Assembly (NCBI RefSeq): GCF_900188335.1
Contig: NZ_FZOY01000009.1
Location: 62,001-126,000, forward strand
Direction of reading: 5' to 3'
Length of the DNA stretch: 64,000 nucleotides
Source of the DNA: Tropicimonas sediminicola
GTDB taxonomy: Bacteria; Pseudomonadota; Alphaproteobacteria; Rhodobacterales; Rhodobacteraceae
Program-made: the position numbers and the translations under genes
Notes under the pieces: generated by a model
Told to the model about the DNA's origin: nothing
What the model saw: only the letters and a program-made list of their open reading frames with translations
Databases searched by the model: none
In this document: piece after piece, positions 1-5,733 of the stretch
Layout: every line of letters begins with the position of its first letter
Numbering within the stretch: position 1 is the first letter of the stretch

Positions 1-2721
1 GCCAGTGTCGTCGATCTCGATCCCCGGGGTGTCTGTTCCGACACCGCACCGCGTGCAATGGGCGATCGATTTGCGCGGGGCGTTCATCCGAATGACGCAG
101 GACCCGACGTCCGGATGCGCCATCGCCGCCGCGACGATCTCGGCCGGCTCGATCCGCACGCCGCGCAGCTTCAGCTGGGTATCGAGCCGGCCGTGGTACC
201 GCAGCGTCCCGTCCCGCGCGACGGAGCCGAGATCGCCCGTGCGATAGATCCTGCGGCTGGGCGCGAACGGGTCCGGGAGGAAGACCTCGTCGGTTGCCTC
301 GCTGTTGCGGAAGTATCCATCTGCCAGCCGCTCGATGCCTCCGACGAAGAGCTCTGCCGGCACCTCGTCGGGCGCGGGGTTGCCGCCTGCGTCGAGCAGG
401 TAGATCGCCGTTGCCGCAGCAGGCCGGCCGATGGGAACCGCCCGGCCGGTGTCGCTCACCGGGTCGAAACGGTGCGACATGCAGCCGACGACAGCTTCCG
501 TCGGGCCATACTCGTTCCAGATGTCGACATCCCTGCCGAAGGCCGCCTGCGCACGGCCGGCAAGCGCCGTGGTCAGCTCCTCTCCGCCGAGCACCAGTGA
601 CCGTATATTCTCCAGCCTGCGCGGCGTTTCCGTGACCAACGCGAGGTGCGCGGGCGTGAGTTTGACGACGTCGACCGCATCTTCCTCGAACACCCGCAGC
701 ACCGAGAGATCGGGGCCATCGGCCGGCTCGCGATAGCTCCGGATCTGTCCCCCGGCCACCAGCGGCGCGAAGATCGAAGTGATCGTGAGATCGAAACCGG
801 TGGCCGAGTGCAGCGCCCACCGCGCCCGTGGCACCGGAGAAAACTCCCGGGCCGCCCAATGGGCATAGCGCGAAAGCGCGGCACGGCCGACGACGACGCC
901 CTTCGGGGTGCCGGTCGAGCCGGAGGTGAAGATCACATAGGCCCTGTCACACGCCGAGCCCTCGGAGGGAGTGCCCGCTGTCCGCGGCGCGATATCGGCG
1001 AGATCGAGCCGGCGGGCCGCAGGCGCCCAACGTTCCGCCAGTGCCGCTTCGGAAAGGACCAGCGCGGGTCGCGCCTCCTCGGCGATCCGGTCGAGCCGCT
1101 GCGCAGGTTGCTGCGGATCGAAAGGCACGAACACGGCGCCGCGCTTCAGTGCGCCGAGCATGGCGGCGACCAGGTCGGGCGAACGCGTCAGATGCAGGCC
1201 CACGAGGTCCCCTTGCCCCACGCCGGCATACGCGAGCGCCGCCGCAATGGCATCGGACCGCGCCGCAAGTCCCTTGCGGTCGAGATCGCCGCCGTCGCCT
1301 GCGATCACCGGCGCGTCGGGATCATCGGCGAGGTGTTTGGCGAACGCATCCAGCACGTCCTGCACCGGGCTTGCCGCCTCGGCGCGGATCTCTGCCTGCC
1401 GCCGGGTGAGCCGGACCGACTGATCGTCTCCGTCGGCGAGATCGACCGAGCCGATCCGCGCGTCGGGATCATCCAGGAAGCGGTCGAGCAGGCGCAGGAA
1501 ATGTAACTGCGCGGCCTCGCGCCGCGGCGCATCAAAGGTCGAGGCATTGAAAAGCCATTTGAGCTCGCCCCCCGCGCTCTCGCCGTAATCGCTGACGTTG
1601 AGACGAACCGCGTGGCGGGGATCGGAATGGCCGTTGTCGAGCCAGTCCGCGCGCCCGATCCCGGAAACGTCGGCAAAGCTCGCGGTGATGTGGTTCAACA
1701 CGACGTTGAAGCCACCCTGCAGACCGGCGGTGCTGGCTCCGGGCGCCGCGTTCCGCAACAGGTCCATGCCGGTTTCGGCGACCTTTGCGTGCAGGCTGGC
1801 AAAGGTCTCGTCCGGGTCCAGCGCGGCGGCGAGCGGGAAAAGCTCGACCATGCATCCGGCGACATCCAGGTCGGTCGCGGCATGGCGCCCGTGGGTGACC
1901 GTTCCGAGCGAAAGCCTCTCCTGCCCGGAAACCCGGTGCATCCACGCCAACAGCGCCGTGGCATAGACGTTGAACGCGGCCTGATGGCGCGACAGGGCCG
2001 CGAACCTGTCCTGCGTGACAAGCTGCGAGAGCTTCTCGCTCCGCTCCGACCCGAGCGGGATGCGGACCACGGCCGCCGCGCTTTCCCCGGGCTCTCCGGA
2101 TTGCCCGTAGAGGCGCGGCAGAGCGACGGCGTTGCGCTTGACGGCCGACCAGTGATCGCGCACGGCGTCCGGAATCGGGCGCGGCTCCAGAGCCCGTGGC
2201 AGGAACTGCGCCGCGCTGGCGGGCTCAGGCTCCCTGCCCGTCCGCAACGCCGCGATCCGCGCCGCAAGGTCCTCCAGCAACACCCGGCCGGACCAGGCGT
2301 CCGTGAAGATGTGATGCTGGCAGAAATAGAAGAGGCAGTCCCCGCTCCGGGTGCGCAGGCATGCAGCCTCGAAGGTTTCGCGGGAAAGATCGAAGCCACG
2401 GCCGATCCGCTGTTCCGCCCAGTGCCTTGCGGCGGCATCGTCCTCGACATCGACCGCCCCGAAGCGCCCCGCCGGCTGCCCGCTGTCGTATTGAGCGGGC
2501 TCCGCATCGGAAGTCCGGATCACCAGCCGCAAGGCATCTCGCGACCGGCACAGGCCGTCGAACGCACGCCGCACGGTTTCCGTGTCCGGGGAACCTTCCA
2601 GTTCCACCAGCCAGGCCATGTTGTAAAGCGGGCTGTTCGGCGCCATCTGCTGGCCCGCCCAGAGCATCTTCTGCGGCGACGTGAGGGGCGCCTCGGCCAG
2701 ATGTCCGGCGCGCTCTGTCAT
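1..2721 (-). CDS. NRPS condensation-adenylation protein with a C-terminal Cys motif (3' end outside window)
   Basis: At least 907 residues; the frame has no stop before the left edge. A condensation domain (about 10-430) carries the catalytic HHxxxD as HHIFTD at 136-141. An adenylation domain (about 480-870) shows TSGSTGTPKG at 599-608, then GFDLTITSIF, NEYGPTEA, YRTGDL and the A8 hinge (GRLDTQ to IEPAEI, 844-862). Shortly after A8 the usual A9/A10 path is not seen; instead HCTRCG (Cys 889 and 892) is followed by PGIEIDDTG. By family knowledge this resembles the N-terminal Cys motif of WbpG/PseA-type PP-loop amidotransferases. The ATG has AAAGGA 7 nt upstream and overlaps the carrier gene stop by 4 nt, so the two are coupled. 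It should condense an acyl or aminoacyl group from a carrier with its own activated amino acid; substrates are unknown. Confidence 0.9.
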   Translation of the reverse strand, partial: MTERAGHLAEAPLTSPQKMLWAGQQMAPNSPLYNMAWLVELEGSPDTETVRRAFDGLCRSRDALRLVIRTSDAEPAQYDSGQPAGRFGAVDVEDDAAARHWAEQRIGRGFDLSRETFEAACLRTRSGDCLFYFCQHHIFTDAWSGRVLLEDLAARIAALRTGREPEPASAAQFLPRALEPRPIPDAVRDHWSAVKRNAVALPRLYGQSGEPGESAAAVVRIPLGSERSEKLSQLVTQDRFAALSRHQAAFNVYATALLAWMHRVSGQERLSLGTVTHGRHAATDLDVAGCMVELFPLAAALDPDETFASLHAKVAETGMDLLRNAAPGASTAGLQGGFNVVLNHITASFADVSGIGRADWLDNGHSDPRHAVRLNVSDYGESAGGELKWLFNASTFDAPRREAAQLHFLRLLDRFLDDPDARIGSVDLADGDDQSVRLTRRQAEIRAEAASPVQDVLDAFAKHLADDPDAPVIAGDGGDLDRKGLAARSDAIAAALAYAGVGQGDLVGLHLTRSPDLVAAMLGALKRGAVFVPFDPQQPAQRLDRIAEEARPALVLSEAALAERWAPAARRLDLADIAPRTAGTPSEGSACDRAYVIFTSGSTGTPKGVVVGRAALSRYAHWAAREFSPVPRARWALHSATGFDLTITSIFAPLVAGGQIRSYREPADGPDLSVLRVFEEDAVDVVKLTPAHLALVTETPRRLENIRSLVLGGEELTTALAGRAQAAFGRDVDIWNEYGPTEAVVGCMSHRFDPVSDTGRAVPIGRPAAATAIYLLDAGGNPAPDEVPAELFVGGIERLADGYFRNSEATDEVFLPDPFAPSRRIYRTGDLGSVARDGTLRYHGRLDTQLKLRGVRIEPAEIVAAAMAHPDVGSCVIRMNAPRKSIAHCTRCGVGTDTPGIEIDDTG

Positions 2722-2951
2722 GCGGCCGTCCTTTTGGCGACATAGGCCGCGATCGCGTTCAACGTCCCGAAGTTCGAGATCTTCAGGTCGCTTGCCGGGA
2801 TCTTTATGCCGAAGCTCGCCTCCAGAAAGGCAACGATCCGCATCACGCCCAGCGAGTCGATCATGCCACTGAGCAGCAGCGGCTCATCGGCGGTGATTTC
2901 CCGTTCCAGTACAAGATCCGCCTCGATGAACTCCCGTATCGTCTCATGCAT
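2718..2951 (-). CDS. Free-standing peptidyl/acyl carrier protein
   Basis: A 77-residue carrier protein. The phosphopantetheine attachment serine lies in LLLSGMIDSLGVMRIV (Ser33 of the IDSLG core), with the three-to-four helix length usual for a carrier. The ATG at 2951 overlaps the stop of the upstream adenylation gene by 8 nt, and its own stop overlaps the next synthetase by 4 nt. The three genes are therefore one translationally coupled unit. It probably holds the residue loaded by the free adenylation enzyme and presents it to the downstream condensation domain. It should be activated by the transferase encoded at 4900-5733. Confidence 0.9.
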   Translation of the reverse strand: MHETIREFIEADLVLEREITADEPLLLSGMIDSLGVMRIVAFLEASFGIKIPASDLKISNFGTLNAIAAYVAKRTAA

Positions 2952-4557
2952 TTCCAACCACTCCCGATACCTGAGCCTCGCCCGACAACTGTTCCGCCAA
3001 AGCCCGGCGATCGATCTTTCCCGAGCCCGTTCGCGGAAACTCCGGCAAGAGTTCGATCCGGTCCGGACGGGCAAAATGCGGCAACAGGCGCGCCACCGCC
3101 GCAGCAAGGTCGCGCGCTCCAATCGTTTCGTCGGGGTTCAGAATTGCCGCGCCCCTGATGACGGTAACCCCCTCGCGCAACGCAACCGTGAAGGCCGCCG
3201 CCTCCGAGACCATCGGCAACCCCGCGATGGCGCGTTCGACCTCGTCGAGTTCCACCCGGAAGCCCCGTGACTTCACCATCCGGTCGCGGCGTCCGAGGAA
3301 ATCGAGATTTCCGTCAGGGCGCTCAATCACGATGTCCCCGGTGCGGTAATAGCGCTGCGTCTCGCCACCGGCCCCGGCCCTTTCCAGGAACGCCGTCCGG
3401 TTCAGTTCCGGTTGCCGCCAGTAGCCTTGCATCATCGTCGGCGCGCGGACGGCGAGTTCACCGGTCTCCCCCGGGGCGACATCCGCATCGTCCTCGCCGA
3501 TCACCAGGAGGTCGGCATTGGGACAGGCGGCACCGATGGGCACCGGCCCACGGTCGGCATTCCACCCTTCCGGAACGTTGAACCACGTGCACTGATTTGT
3601 TTCGGCCGGGCCATAGACATTGCCGATCAGCGCGTCGGGAAGAAGACGTCGCAATGTCTCGAGATGCTTCGGAACGAAAACCTCGCCGCCATAGAGGACG
3701 ATCCTGAGGGCACTCAGGTCGCGCGAACCAAGATCGCCGAATTCGACAAGCTGCAGCAAGGCCAGGGGGACGGAGTACCAGACCGTCAACCGCTCCGCTT
3801 CGATCAGTTCCGCGAGGCTCGCCGGCAACTTGAGCCAGGGATCGGGAATGATCGTCGTGCTTGCCCCCACCAGGGTCGAGCAGAAGTAGTCGAGGGTCGA
3901 CATGTCGAAATGCAGACCGCAGGCGTTGCTGAACCGGTCGTCGGCGCGAAGGCCATACAGGTTCGCAGCCATACAGGCATAGCTCATGCCGCTGGCGTGA
4001 GTGTGCATGATACCCTTGGGCGTGCCGGTCGAGCCCGAGGTGAACATGATGTACGCGAGGTCGGTTTCCGAGAGGACCTGCGCGCGCGCACCGAGGTCGG
4101 GAGACGACAACGCCTCCTCCCAGGAGATCACGTCGACCTCTGCCTCAAGCGGCTTCGACAGGCCGATGACGGCCGACATGCTGGCGGGAAAACCGCCTGG
4201 CAGCGCAGCCCGCTTTGCCTCGGTGGTGACAAGGCATCGTGCACCGCTCAGATCGAGGATCTCACGAACGCGCTGCTGCGAAGCACCGGGATCGATCGGC
4301 ACATAGGCCGCCCCTGCCCGCAGGATCCCGAAGAGCGCAATGGTGGCCTGAAACGACCGATCGAGAAACAGAGCCACCCGATCCCCCCGGCGCACGCCGG
4401 CCTCCACCAATGTTCGCGCCATTCGGGAGCTCGTATCGGCGAGCTCGGAATAGGTCAGGCTGGCCCCGTCGAACCTGAAGGCGGGCTTGTCCGGGGTCGC
4501 GTCGGCCGCGAGTCCGAGCGGCGTGTGGAGAAGAGCGGGAAAAGTCGGTTGGATCAT
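2944..4557 (-). CDS. Stand-alone amino acid adenylation enzyme
   Basis: A complete 537-residue AMP-forming adenylation enzyme without fused carrier. Visible motifs are TSGSTGTPKG (173-182), HFDMSTLDYF (A4 region, Asp expected to bind the substrate amino group), YGGE, NVYGPAETN, YRTGD, GRRDRMVKSRGFRVEL (A8) and GSGKIDRRAL (A10, catalytic Lys). The HFDxST core resembles carrier-loading enzymes of the prolyl-AMP ligase or DltA kind, but substrate cannot be assigned by eye. The start is uncertain: the ATG at 4557 fits family N-termini but has a poor ribosome-binding site, while a GTG at 4626 has GGAAAGAG upstream. First gene of the three-gene minus operon; it should load the carrier at 2718-2951. 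Confidence 0.9.
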   Translation of the reverse strand: MIQPTFPALLHTPLGLAADATPDKPAFRFDGASLTYSELADTSSRMARTLVEAGVRRGDRVALFLDRSFQATIALFGILRAGAAYVPIDPGASQQRVREILDLSGARCLVTTEAKRAALPGGFPASMSAVIGLSKPLEAEVDVISWEEALSSPDLGARAQVLSETDLAYIMFTSGSTGTPKGIMHTHASGMSYACMAANLYGLRADDRFSNACGLHFDMSTLDYFCSTLVGASTTIIPDPWLKLPASLAELIEAERLTVWYSVPLALLQLVEFGDLGSRDLSALRIVLYGGEVFVPKHLETLRRLLPDALIGNVYGPAETNQCTWFNVPEGWNADRGPVPIGAACPNADLLVIGEDDADVAPGETGELAVRAPTMMQGYWRQPELNRTAFLERAGAGGETQRYYRTGDIVIERPDGNLDFLGRRDRMVKSRGFRVELDEVERAIAGLPMVSEAAAFTVALREGVTVIRGAAILNPDETIGARDLAAAVARLLPHFARPDRIELLPEFPRTGSGKIDRRALAEQLSGEAQVSGVVGNA

Positions 4558-4638
4558 CTTCGAACCCAATGGCGAGGATGAACGCGGCCCGGGCCGCAAC
4601 GTCGAATTGATTGCCATGCCTCCCACAACGCCACTCTT

Positions 4639-4899: not shown

Positions 4900-5733
4900 A
4901 TGCCAGCAAGGATGCCCGACAAGGACGTTCCAGTTTCCGTCCACCAGTGTGGGATGGAGGAGATCTGGGCGGAGCTCCGGACGTCAGAAGGGCAGACTGC
5001 CCCCTTTGCGATTGTCCTGTCCCTCGGCTCACCCGCGGATGCCGACTTGCCCGAAGCATCGCTCCTTTGCCCGGAGGAAACGAGCCGACACCGGCGCATA
5101 CGGGAGCCGGTGTCGTCCTGGGCCTATCTCTGCAGTCATATTGCCTTGAGGCTTCTCGCCGGCCGGGCGTTGCGCCGGTCTCCCGCCGCGCTTGAATTCC
5201 TCAGCCCCGGCGCGCCCAACGTGGCACCCAGGCTCCGTGGTCAGGCACAGACCGGGCTTCAGGTCAGCCTCTCGCATTCGGGCGGGTGGGCAGCCATAGG
5301 GCTGCGGCAGGGCGGCCCCATCGGGATCGACGTCGAGCAGGTTTCGCGAGAGATCGACGCGCTTGCCGTCGCGGACCACTTCCTGACGCCGAACGAGTTG
5401 AACGAACTTCGCGCCCTGCCCGGTCATGCGCAAGGGCCATCGGCCTTGCGGTCCTGGTGCGCCAAGGAAGCGGTGCTGAAGGCGGCCGGCACGGGATTGT
5501 CGACCGATCCCCGAACCGTTCCGGTTCACTGGTCGGGACACGCCGGAACCAGCGCTCTGGACGGGGTCGGCTACGAACTTGCCCTCATAGGAGAGCGGTC
5601 CGCCGGGAAAGCCACGGGAGCAATCGCCGGCAAGGCGCCGGTCGGCCAGATCATCGAAGCGCATTCATCCTTCAACGAACTCCTGTCGCTCTTCCGCGAG
5701 TCGCAACCATGGTGGGAGACGCCCGTCGACTAG
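4900..5733 (+). CDS. Sfp-type 4'-phosphopantetheinyl transferase
   Basis: A 277-residue protein of the Sfp/EntD superfamily, which transfers phosphopantetheine from CoA to the carrier serine. The key family motifs are present: GIDVEQ (Mg2+/CoA site, about residue 145) and WCAKEAVLKAAG (about 187-198). GAGG lies 4 nt upstream of the ATG at 4900; an ATG at 4912 is also possible, since the first 50 residues are not strongly family-like. It is divergent from the adenylation/carrier/synthetase operon and is the obvious activator of its carrier domains. Length is slightly above the usual 220-250 residues. Confidence 0.93.
   Translation: MPARMPDKDVPVSVHQCGMEEIWAELRTSEGQTAPFAIVLSLGSPADADLPEASLLCPEETSRHRRIREPVSSWAYLCSHIALRLLAGRALRRSPAALEFLSPGAPNVAPRLRGQAQTGLQVSLSHSGGWAAIGLRQGGPIGIDVEQVSREIDALAVADHFLTPNELNELRALPGHAQGPSALRSWCAKEAVLKAAGTGLSTDPRTVPVHWSGHAGTSALDGVGYELALIGERSAGKATGAIAGKAPVGQIIEAHSSFNELLSLFRESQPWWETPVD

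What the first reader, a model, noticed from the sequence alone, without database searches (positions are those of the whole stretch)
1..60. Adenylation domain that breaks off after A8 into a CxxC PP-loop-amidotransferase-like motif
Seen: after the A8 hinge and the first strand of the C-terminal subdomain, residues 889-907 read CTRCG followed by PGIEIDDTG. The expected A9/A10 sequence with its catalytic Lys has not appeared by the edge. From family memory this is the Cys-bearing start of WbpG/PseA-type enzymes of the PP-loop ATPase superfamily; PP-loop enzymes also make thioamides on carrier-bound peptides. Inference: a synthetase with a built-in nitrogen- or sulfur-transfer module, or an adenylation domain with a replaced C-lobe. 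This would be a novel assembly-line layout.
Basis: partly seen in the sequence, partly recalled or inferred. Interest (0 to 1): 0.8.

Follow-up and report, generated by a model that had tools for sequence, protein, structure and literature searches.

The report
Asparagine-loading enzyme with inserted nitrile-maker domain
A peptide-assembly enzyme that loads asparagine carries, inside its loading domain, a second ATP-using domain of a kind known from the antibiotics albicidin and cystobactamid that probably turns asparagine into an unusual nitrile or rearranged form; the layout is not new, but its cysteine pattern suggests an iron-sulfur cofactor, and the genes around it recur in many bacterial groups with no product known to me.

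Summary
Past the window edge the 1392-aa protein reads C–A(to A8)–[~330-aa PP-loop domain]–A9/A10–PCP, with no frameshift: an interrupted, not replaced, A domain. Its code DLTKVGEVGK is asparagine-type.

The layout is in print: the AMDH (aminomutase/amide dehydratase) domain of CysH and AlbIV, inserted in Asn-specific A domains, makes β-cyanoalanine or isoasparagine on the carrier (PMC7966384). That is my best reading; CysH itself was not aligned.

New here: the nearest solved fold is N-acetyl-sugar amidotransferase, with its Zn tetracysteine, plus a three-Cys triad (86 of 86 sequences; Cys in at most 1 of 25 control amidotransferases per column) that aligns with LarE/TtuA [4Fe-4S] ligands. 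It could explain the brown colour of CysH. Sulfur insertion remains a rival.

261 relatives were found, of which the 80 kept span many phyla. The neighbourhood recurs: free-standing A, carrier, prolyl-ACP-dehydrogenase-like protein, HupE/UreJ_2; 39 of 39 loci with a further large NRPS A domain show a histidine code there. Predicted core: pyrrole/pyrroline–modified Asn–His.

The parts
1..2721 (-). NRPS1, first 907 of 1392 aa (whole gene C24:60543-64721): C domain, A domain to A8, start of the inserted PP-loop domain
   Evidence: Pfam Condensation 10-324, AMP-binding 461-804, PP-binding 1295-1357
310..1341 (-). A-domain core (residues 461-804), specificity code DLTKVGEVG + K of A10 (Asn type)
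136..165 (-). A8 hinge RGVRIEPAEI (residues 853-862)
1..66 (-). start of the inserted AMDH-type PP-loop domain (residues 886-907 of about 886-1212; boundaries chosen by me); rest outside the window at about C24:61086-62000
2718..2951 (-). free-standing carrier protein (77 aa)
   Evidence: PP-binding 4.5e-9
2944..4557 (-). free-standing A domain, probably prolyl; best single-domain PDB match 6o6e L-proline--[L-prolyl-carrier protein] ligase (1.8e-82; multidomain gramicidin synthetase chains score higher); code DMLYLGVQ; an upstream start at 4626 is possible
4900..5733 (+). phosphopantetheinyl transferase (PF01648; HetI model hit below its cut-off)

Best explanation
It is an Asn-activating A domain interrupted between A8 and A9 by an AMDH-type (aminomutase/amide dehydratase) domain of the PP-loop (AANH) superfamily. 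Proposed working: the A domain adenylates the alpha-carboxyl of Asn and loads it on the PCP (inferred from the code). The inserted domain binds ATP at SGGKDS and activates the side-chain amide oxygen as an AMP ester; loss of AMP gives the nitrile (beta-cyanoalanine). In some pathways it gives isoasparagine instead. A [4Fe-4S] cluster on CxGC plus a late Cys (residues 1025, 1028, 1151) would serve as Lewis acid or cofactor. The C domain joins the residue to a proline-derived acyl starter (pyrrole-2-carboxyl or pyrroline-carboxyl), and the next module adds His. Shown here: domain order, insertion site, motifs, predicted fold, Cys conservation, codes, neighbourhood. From the literature: the CysH reaction on carrier-bound Asn. 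Inferred: that this member does the same, the AMP-ester step, the Fe-S cluster, and the product.
For: Insertion site, A10 Lys and PCP. Asn code DLTK[IV]GEVGK in 75 of 86 sequences, close variants in 4, last residue cut off in 2, core missing wholly or partly in 5; PMC12283262 says that DLTKIGEVGK is also compatible with its Cya-3 moiety. PMC7966384: a 38-kDa SGGKD domain inserted in CysH dehydrates T-bound Asn in vitro (-18, read as cyanoalanine), and BLAST homologues were all inserted in Asn-specific A domains; ours is 37.0 kDa. Five of 80 relatives have the CysH-like layout of a complete A[insert]-PCP without a C domain (L068, L090, L091, L100, L103). PP-loop fold: AF2 pLDDT 91.4, Foldseek 8wex first. 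Triad in 86 of 86 and, by motif, in 18 of 18 further embedded copies; the profile aligns CxGC with the RCYNC of 8cnz, which is [4Fe-4S] LarE (title). CysH is dark brown and its authors found no CxxCxxxC motif.
Against: No CysH or AlbIV sequence was aligned: none was recognised among the 80 loci kept of 261 or. CtaC and TtuA use the same kind of triad to insert sulfur, which fits thioamidation at least as well as dehydration; QueC makes a nitrile without such a cluster (recalled). No Fe-S cluster is shown. The fold match to 8wex is loose (TM 0.60 and 0.64 by query length, rmsd 9.9 and 6.7); the TtuA and LarE matches are weaker (TM 0.30-0.39 among the rows shown) and beta-lactam/carbapenam and asparagine synthetases score alike. 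The sequence match to TtuA is weak (E 0.04). The model was made from L036 (70% identical), and its coordinates could not be measured. The Asn assignment rests on a code. One of 25 NASAT controls (L126) also has a CxxC plus a later Cys at similar spacing.
Confidence: 0.72

Rival explanations
1. The insert is a thioamide synthetase like CtaC: it adenylates an amide (the starter-Asn peptide bond or the Asn side chain) on the PCP and a [4Fe-4S]-bound sulfide replaces oxygen.
For: Triad spacing from the PP-loop Ser: here S959-C1025-C1028-C1151, CtaC S78-C154-C157-C284 (PMC6772006). Profile match to LarE and fold matches to TtuA and LarE sulfur transferases. CtaC acts on PCP-bound substrate and its cluster encodes no sulfur-mobilising enzyme either.
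Against: The host A domain is Asn-type wherever the core could be read, and the characterised domain in that setting dehydrates or isomerises Asn (PMC7966384). No CtaC sequence was aligned here. First fold match is NASAT, not a sulfur transferase.
Confidence: 0.17
2. The insert is an amidotransferase like WbpG/PseA/LpNASAT and makes an amidine from an amide with ammonia.
For: TIGR03573 matches 80 of 80 members at E <= 0.001; same Zn tetracysteine (Cys in 23, 23, 23 and 24 of 25 NASAT controls at the four columns).
Against: Score 79.2 bits against a cut-off of 203.2. The triad columns hold Cys in 1, 1 and 0 of 25 controls. HisF in 0 and HisH in 1 of 83 neighbourhoods, each sought with one query (the HisH of L030 lies about 14.5 kb from the insert). 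Of three NASAT loci read, two sit beside hisH and a HisF2-family gene; the third sits near asnB instead.
Confidence: 0.06
3. The domain acts only as an Asn to isoasparagine mutase in this pathway, or has lost catalysis and is structural.
For: Cystobactamid heterologous producers make isoAsn only with the AMDH domain (PMC7966384).
Against: PP-loop and all seven Cys are kept (86 of 86 for the Cys), against loss. No hydroxylase of the CysJ kind is among the neighbour families that I named, but no search for one was made.
Confidence: 0.05

Closest known systems
AMDH domain of CysH (cystobactamid) and its AlbIV homologue (albicidin)
   Same: About 38-kDa domain with SGGKD inserted in an Asn-loading A domain followed by a carrier; homologues in many unassigned gene clusters (PMC7966384, PMC8949500)
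   Different: CysH/AlbIV are stand-alone A-T modules (CysH hands its product over through the shuttle CysB); here the host is a C-A-PCP module, as in 63 of the 77 relatives parsed, though five are stand-alone like CysH. The passages that I read describe no Zn tetracysteine or Fe-S triad.
N-acetyl sugar amidotransferase (WbuX/WbpG, LpNASAT 8wex)
   Same: Fold (Foldseek rank 1), Zn tetracysteine, SGGKDS
   Different: CxGC+C triad absent from nearly all controls; free-standing; HisH/HisF neighbours in two of three loci read; sugar substrate
CtaC, closthioamide thioamide synthetase
   Same: AANH superfamily, three-Cys site of similar spacing, PCP-bound substrate
   Different: Free-standing; no Zn tetracysteine mentioned in the two of three parts read; sulfur insertion
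LarE ([4Fe-4S] type, 8cnz) and TtuA
   Same: PP-loop core; CxxC aligns with the insert's CxGC (weak for TtuA)
   Different: Sulfur transferases for a cofactor or tRNA; no NRPS context
Interrupted A domains with methyltransferase, oxidase or ketoreductase inserts (TioS, KtzH and others)
   Same: Same insertion point between A8 and A9 (PMC11355689, passages)
   Different: Unrelated inserted chemistry

Membership tests
AMDH-type domain (CysH/AlbIV) | Inserted in an A domain, carrier after it | tested here: met
AMDH-type domain (CysH/AlbIV) | Host A domain Asn-specific | tested here: met
   By code only: with PMC12283262
AMDH-type domain (CysH/AlbIV) | SGGKD motif, about 38 kDa | tested here: met
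   SGGKDS at 954; residues 886-1212 = 37.0 kDa
AMDH-type domain (CysH/AlbIV) | Sequence homology to CysH or AlbIV | not tested
   No CysH recognised; AlbIV of the sugarcane pathogen left unfetched on purpose
AMDH-type domain (CysH/AlbIV) | Dehydrates or isomerises T-bound Asn | not testable with these tools
   Needs enzyme assay
N-acetyl sugar amidotransferase (TIGR03573) | Model score over 203.2 bits | tested here: not met
   79.2 bits; 83.5
N-acetyl sugar amidotransferase (TIGR03573) | Zn tetracysteine and PP-loop | tested here: met
   zinc in LpNASAT from PMC10607449
N-acetyl sugar amidotransferase (TIGR03573) | HisH/HisF partners nearby | tested here: not met
   HisH 1, HisF 0 of 83 neighbourhoods; some loci are short
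CtaC-type thioamide synthetase | Three Cys of the [4Fe-4S] AANH type | tested here: met
   86 of 86; spacing compared with the text of PMC6772006; cluster itself not shown
CtaC-type thioamide synthetase | Sequence homology to CtaC | not tested
   No CtaC sequence reached
CtaC-type thioamide synthetase | Oxygen-to-sulfur exchange on a PCP-bound amide | not testable with these tools
   Needs enzyme assay
Interrupted A domain (A8-A9) | A8 before, A9/A10 with catalytic Lys after the insert | tested here: met
   Window. Relatives: Lys at the A10 column in 84 of 86, the other 2 (L067, L084) cut off by contig ends

The most novel reading that the evidence does not exclude
AMDH-type domains are [4Fe-4S]-dependent PP-loop enzymes that arose by inserting an amidotransferase-fold domain into Asn-loading A domains, and one branch drives an undescribed, cross-phylum pathway to a (pyrrole or pyrroline)-cyanoalanine-His tripeptide that works as a secreted metal chelator, taken up through TonB receptors in Bacteroidota and linked to HupE/UreJ_2 membrane proteins.
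Probability: 0.3. Interest if true: 0.8.

Novelty: new member of a known kind. Interest (0 to 1): 0.55.

Why it matters
The mechanism of the AMDH domain of cystobactamid and albicidin was left open in PMC7966384: no structure, no CxxCxxxC motif, but a brown protein. The fold assignment and the seven conserved cysteines make two direct tests possible (Zn tetracysteine; [4Fe-4S] triad). The gene set that recurs across phyla, with predictable building blocks (Pro-derived starter, modified Asn, His), points to one widely spread small molecule that could be looked for by mass.

Tried and rejected
Replaced C-lobe or frameshift: rejected, frame open and A9/A10-PCP present. Plain NASAT: rejected on score, triad and partners. 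The first hand-made code of module 2 (DSACIAEVWK, in note 3) was wrong at one position; the alignment gives DSALIAEVW.

Literature on a copper or HupE link gave nothing on this cluster. The 2020 survey of interrupted A domains (Lundy et al.) is not held, so its contents are unknown to me. Searches for a print record of a PP-loop or AANH insert or of AMDH; PMC8949500 first appeared and its albicidin passage.

Full report
What is there. The finding sits at the left edge of the window, which is G000:C24:62001-126000 of a 5.17-Mb genome. Reading left, the minus-strand frame continues without a stop to C24:60543 and encodes 1392 aa. Pfam finds Condensation (10-324), AMP-binding (461-804) and PP-binding (1295-1357), with only a sub-threshold QueC match (949-1021, E 7.8e-4) between them. 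NCBIfam adds TIGR03573, N-acetyl sugar amidotransferase, at 888-1206 with 79.2 bits against a cut-off of 203.2. The insert lies between the strand after A8 (VGSCVIRM) and the strand before A9 (ELICYYTG), followed by LPREMIP (A9) and NGKID (A10) (strand and motif names recalled). [quoted passage not shown]

Relatives. tblastn against plasmids gave 31 records, 2 covering at least 80% of the query: Pseudohalocynthiibacter and Roseovarius plasmids at about 50% identity. Of 198 genomes of the family, 4, the own genome included, match over nearly the whole query at E below 1e-140; the remaining matches are partial and far weaker. A scan of genome contigs with a six-sequence alignment found 283 pattern matches, 261 of which encode a relative; the best 80 were kept, at 54-70% identity, and the other 181 were not shown. 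A tree of the 80 and the window labels 13 groups, among them Pseudomonadota, Acidobacteriota, Bacteroidota, Actinomycetota and Cyanobacteriota; they need 19 label changes against a least of 12 and a shuffled mean of 51.6. The pattern is largely by phylum, with some mixing; many rows are metagenome bins.

Host module. Of the 77 relatives caught at first parse (3 of 80 needed a looser motif), 63 have a long upstream part with a condensation-type motif and 14 a short one: six are open at the contig start, five (L068, L090, L091, L100, L103) are complete A[insert]-PCP proteins of about 1000 aa like the stand-alone CysH, L112 begins 21 bases from the contig end, and in L058 and L061 the upstream part is not in the same frame.

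Always in an Asn A domain where it could be read. Of 86 sequences aligned (80 loci, the window, L010-L012, L030, L031), 52 read DLTKIGEVGK, 23 DLTKVGEVGK, 4 are close variants, 2 lack the last residue and 5 lack the core wholly or in part. PMC12283262 (sections 12 and 16 read; [quoted passage not shown]

Seven cysteines. All 86 hold C at seven columns: two CxxC pairs ahead of the PP-loop, CxGC after it, and a late Cys; 18 of 18 further embedded copies show a CxxC and the late NC by motif. LpNASAT binds zinc with such a tetracysteine (PMC10607449, abstract and results section read). In 25 of 30 NASAT control loci that could be parsed, the first four columns hold Cys in 23, 23, 23 and 24, but the triad columns in 1, 1 and 0; a scan without alignment finds one control (L126) with a CxxC and later Cys at such spacing. 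A profile of the 80 inserts finds in the PDB 8cnz first (E 4e-10; LarE with [4Fe-4S] by its title), CxGC aligned to its RCYNC; NASAT 8wex second (1.7e-7); and weakly TtuA (0.04), again with CxxC on CxxC. CtaC, the closthioamide thioamide synthetase, has its predicted cluster Cys at 154, 157 and 284 and the PP-loop residues D77/S78 (PMC6772006, parts 1 and 2 of 3 read); here D958/S959 and 1025, 1028, 1151.

Structure. AlphaFold2 on the insert of L036 (70% identical to the window's) gives pLDDT 91.4 and pTM 0.89. Foldseek ranks LpNASAT first (E 7.8e-10, TM 0.60 by query length, rmsd 9.9); TtuA, carbapenam synthetase, YcfA, LarE and asparagine synthetases follow near E 1e-5 to 1e-4 with TM by query length of 0.40 or less in the 50 rows shown. 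So the fold family is clear and the closer kinship is not settled by fold beyond NASAT. The A domain with insert folds at pLDDT 89.5 and pTM 0.68. Coordinates could not be measured, and the second library was absent.

Precedent. [quoted passage not shown] CysH turns T-bound Asn into a -18 product only with the AMDH domain; deletion removes isoAsn and cyanoalanine congeners. The authors report a dark brown protein, no CxxCxxxC motif, failed crystallisation and an unknown mechanism. I therefore file the insert as an AMDH-type domain, with the caveat that no CysH sequence was aligned. The Zn tetracysteine and the CxGC+C triad are not described for AMDH in the passages that I read; a search with AMDH terms from 2020 on listed only these two papers.

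Pathway. In 83 neighbourhoods (80 loci, L029, L030, window) a free-standing A domain occurs in 54, a protein of the family of the window's acyl-CoA dehydrogenase in 51, HupE/UreJ_2 in 42, a free-standing carrier in 38, ornithine cyclodeaminase-like in 25, glycosyltransferase in 23, phosphopantetheinyl transferase in 18, TonB receptor in 9, HisH in 1 and HisF in 0. These are lower bounds: many contigs are short, and the window's own carrier was missed. In the 46 loci with ample flanks: dehydrogenase 38, free-standing A 37, HupE/UreJ_2 28, carrier 26. The window's dehydrogenase is nearest to 4irn, prolyl-ACP dehydrogenase (E 1.1e-90), and matches the PigA and RedW models below their cut-offs; its free-standing A domain is nearest, among single-domain chains, to 6o6e, an L-prolyl-carrier ligase. 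Whether the starter ends as pyrrole or pyrroline is open. Thirty-nine loci hold a further A domain in a frame over 2600 bases, and in 39 of 39 its code is DS[AV]L[IM]AEVW; DSALIAEVWK is a His code in PMC12283262. The predicted core is (pyrrole or pyrroline)-modified Asn-His. The names 'ornithine cyclodeaminase' and 'TonB receptor' are my reading of representative sequences, not library matches. Eight of the 11 Bacteroidota loci are in the TonB cluster. A metal-binding role is inference from His, TonB and HupE/UreJ_2 only; literature searches gave neither support nor contradiction.

Verdict. The layout is a member of a published kind. What is worth keeping is the fold and cofactor hypothesis for AMDH and the broad, unassigned gene cluster.

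Noticed in passing
L156 (G627:C25:33249-34139) and L172 (G922:C15:2464-3342): Stand-alone PP-loop proteins of 369 and 374 aa with a CxxC and late NC as in the insert; L156 lies beside what by eye looks like an AsnB-type protein and a carrier protein: possible trans-acting relatives.
   Followed up: partly
L029:14932-17112: Streptomyces sp. NBC_01216 plasmid: the domain stands at the N-terminus of a protein annotated as condensation domain-containing, outside an A domain, next to an NRPS (A-PCP by eye) and asnB.
   Followed up: partly
L007:13813-18540 (left of the window): NRPS2 thioesterase region has GHCQG, suggesting a Cys nucleophile, and a long C-terminal extension without a Pfam match at E <= 0.001.
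   Followed up: no
L007:8346-11091: HupE/UreJ_2 membrane protein and a radical SAM/SPASM protein follow the window's cluster; the HupE/UreJ_2 family recurs in 42 of 83 neighbourhoods, the radical SAM protein in 1, the window's own.
   Followed up: partly
L030, L031: The cluster sits on plasmids of Roseovarius pelagicus and Pseudohalocynthiibacter aestuariivivens whose neighbouring genes share protein accessions, suggesting recent plasmid-borne spread.
   Followed up: no
G220:C1:378391-379422 (L146): A 614-aa protein looks by eye like a NASAT-type domain fused to an N-terminal glutamine-amidotransferase-like part, without the triad, near HisH/HisF-like genes.
   Followed up: no
G492 (genome of L036): Besides the insert, the genome holds three weaker partial matches to the insert profile close together on contig C33.
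   Followed up: no
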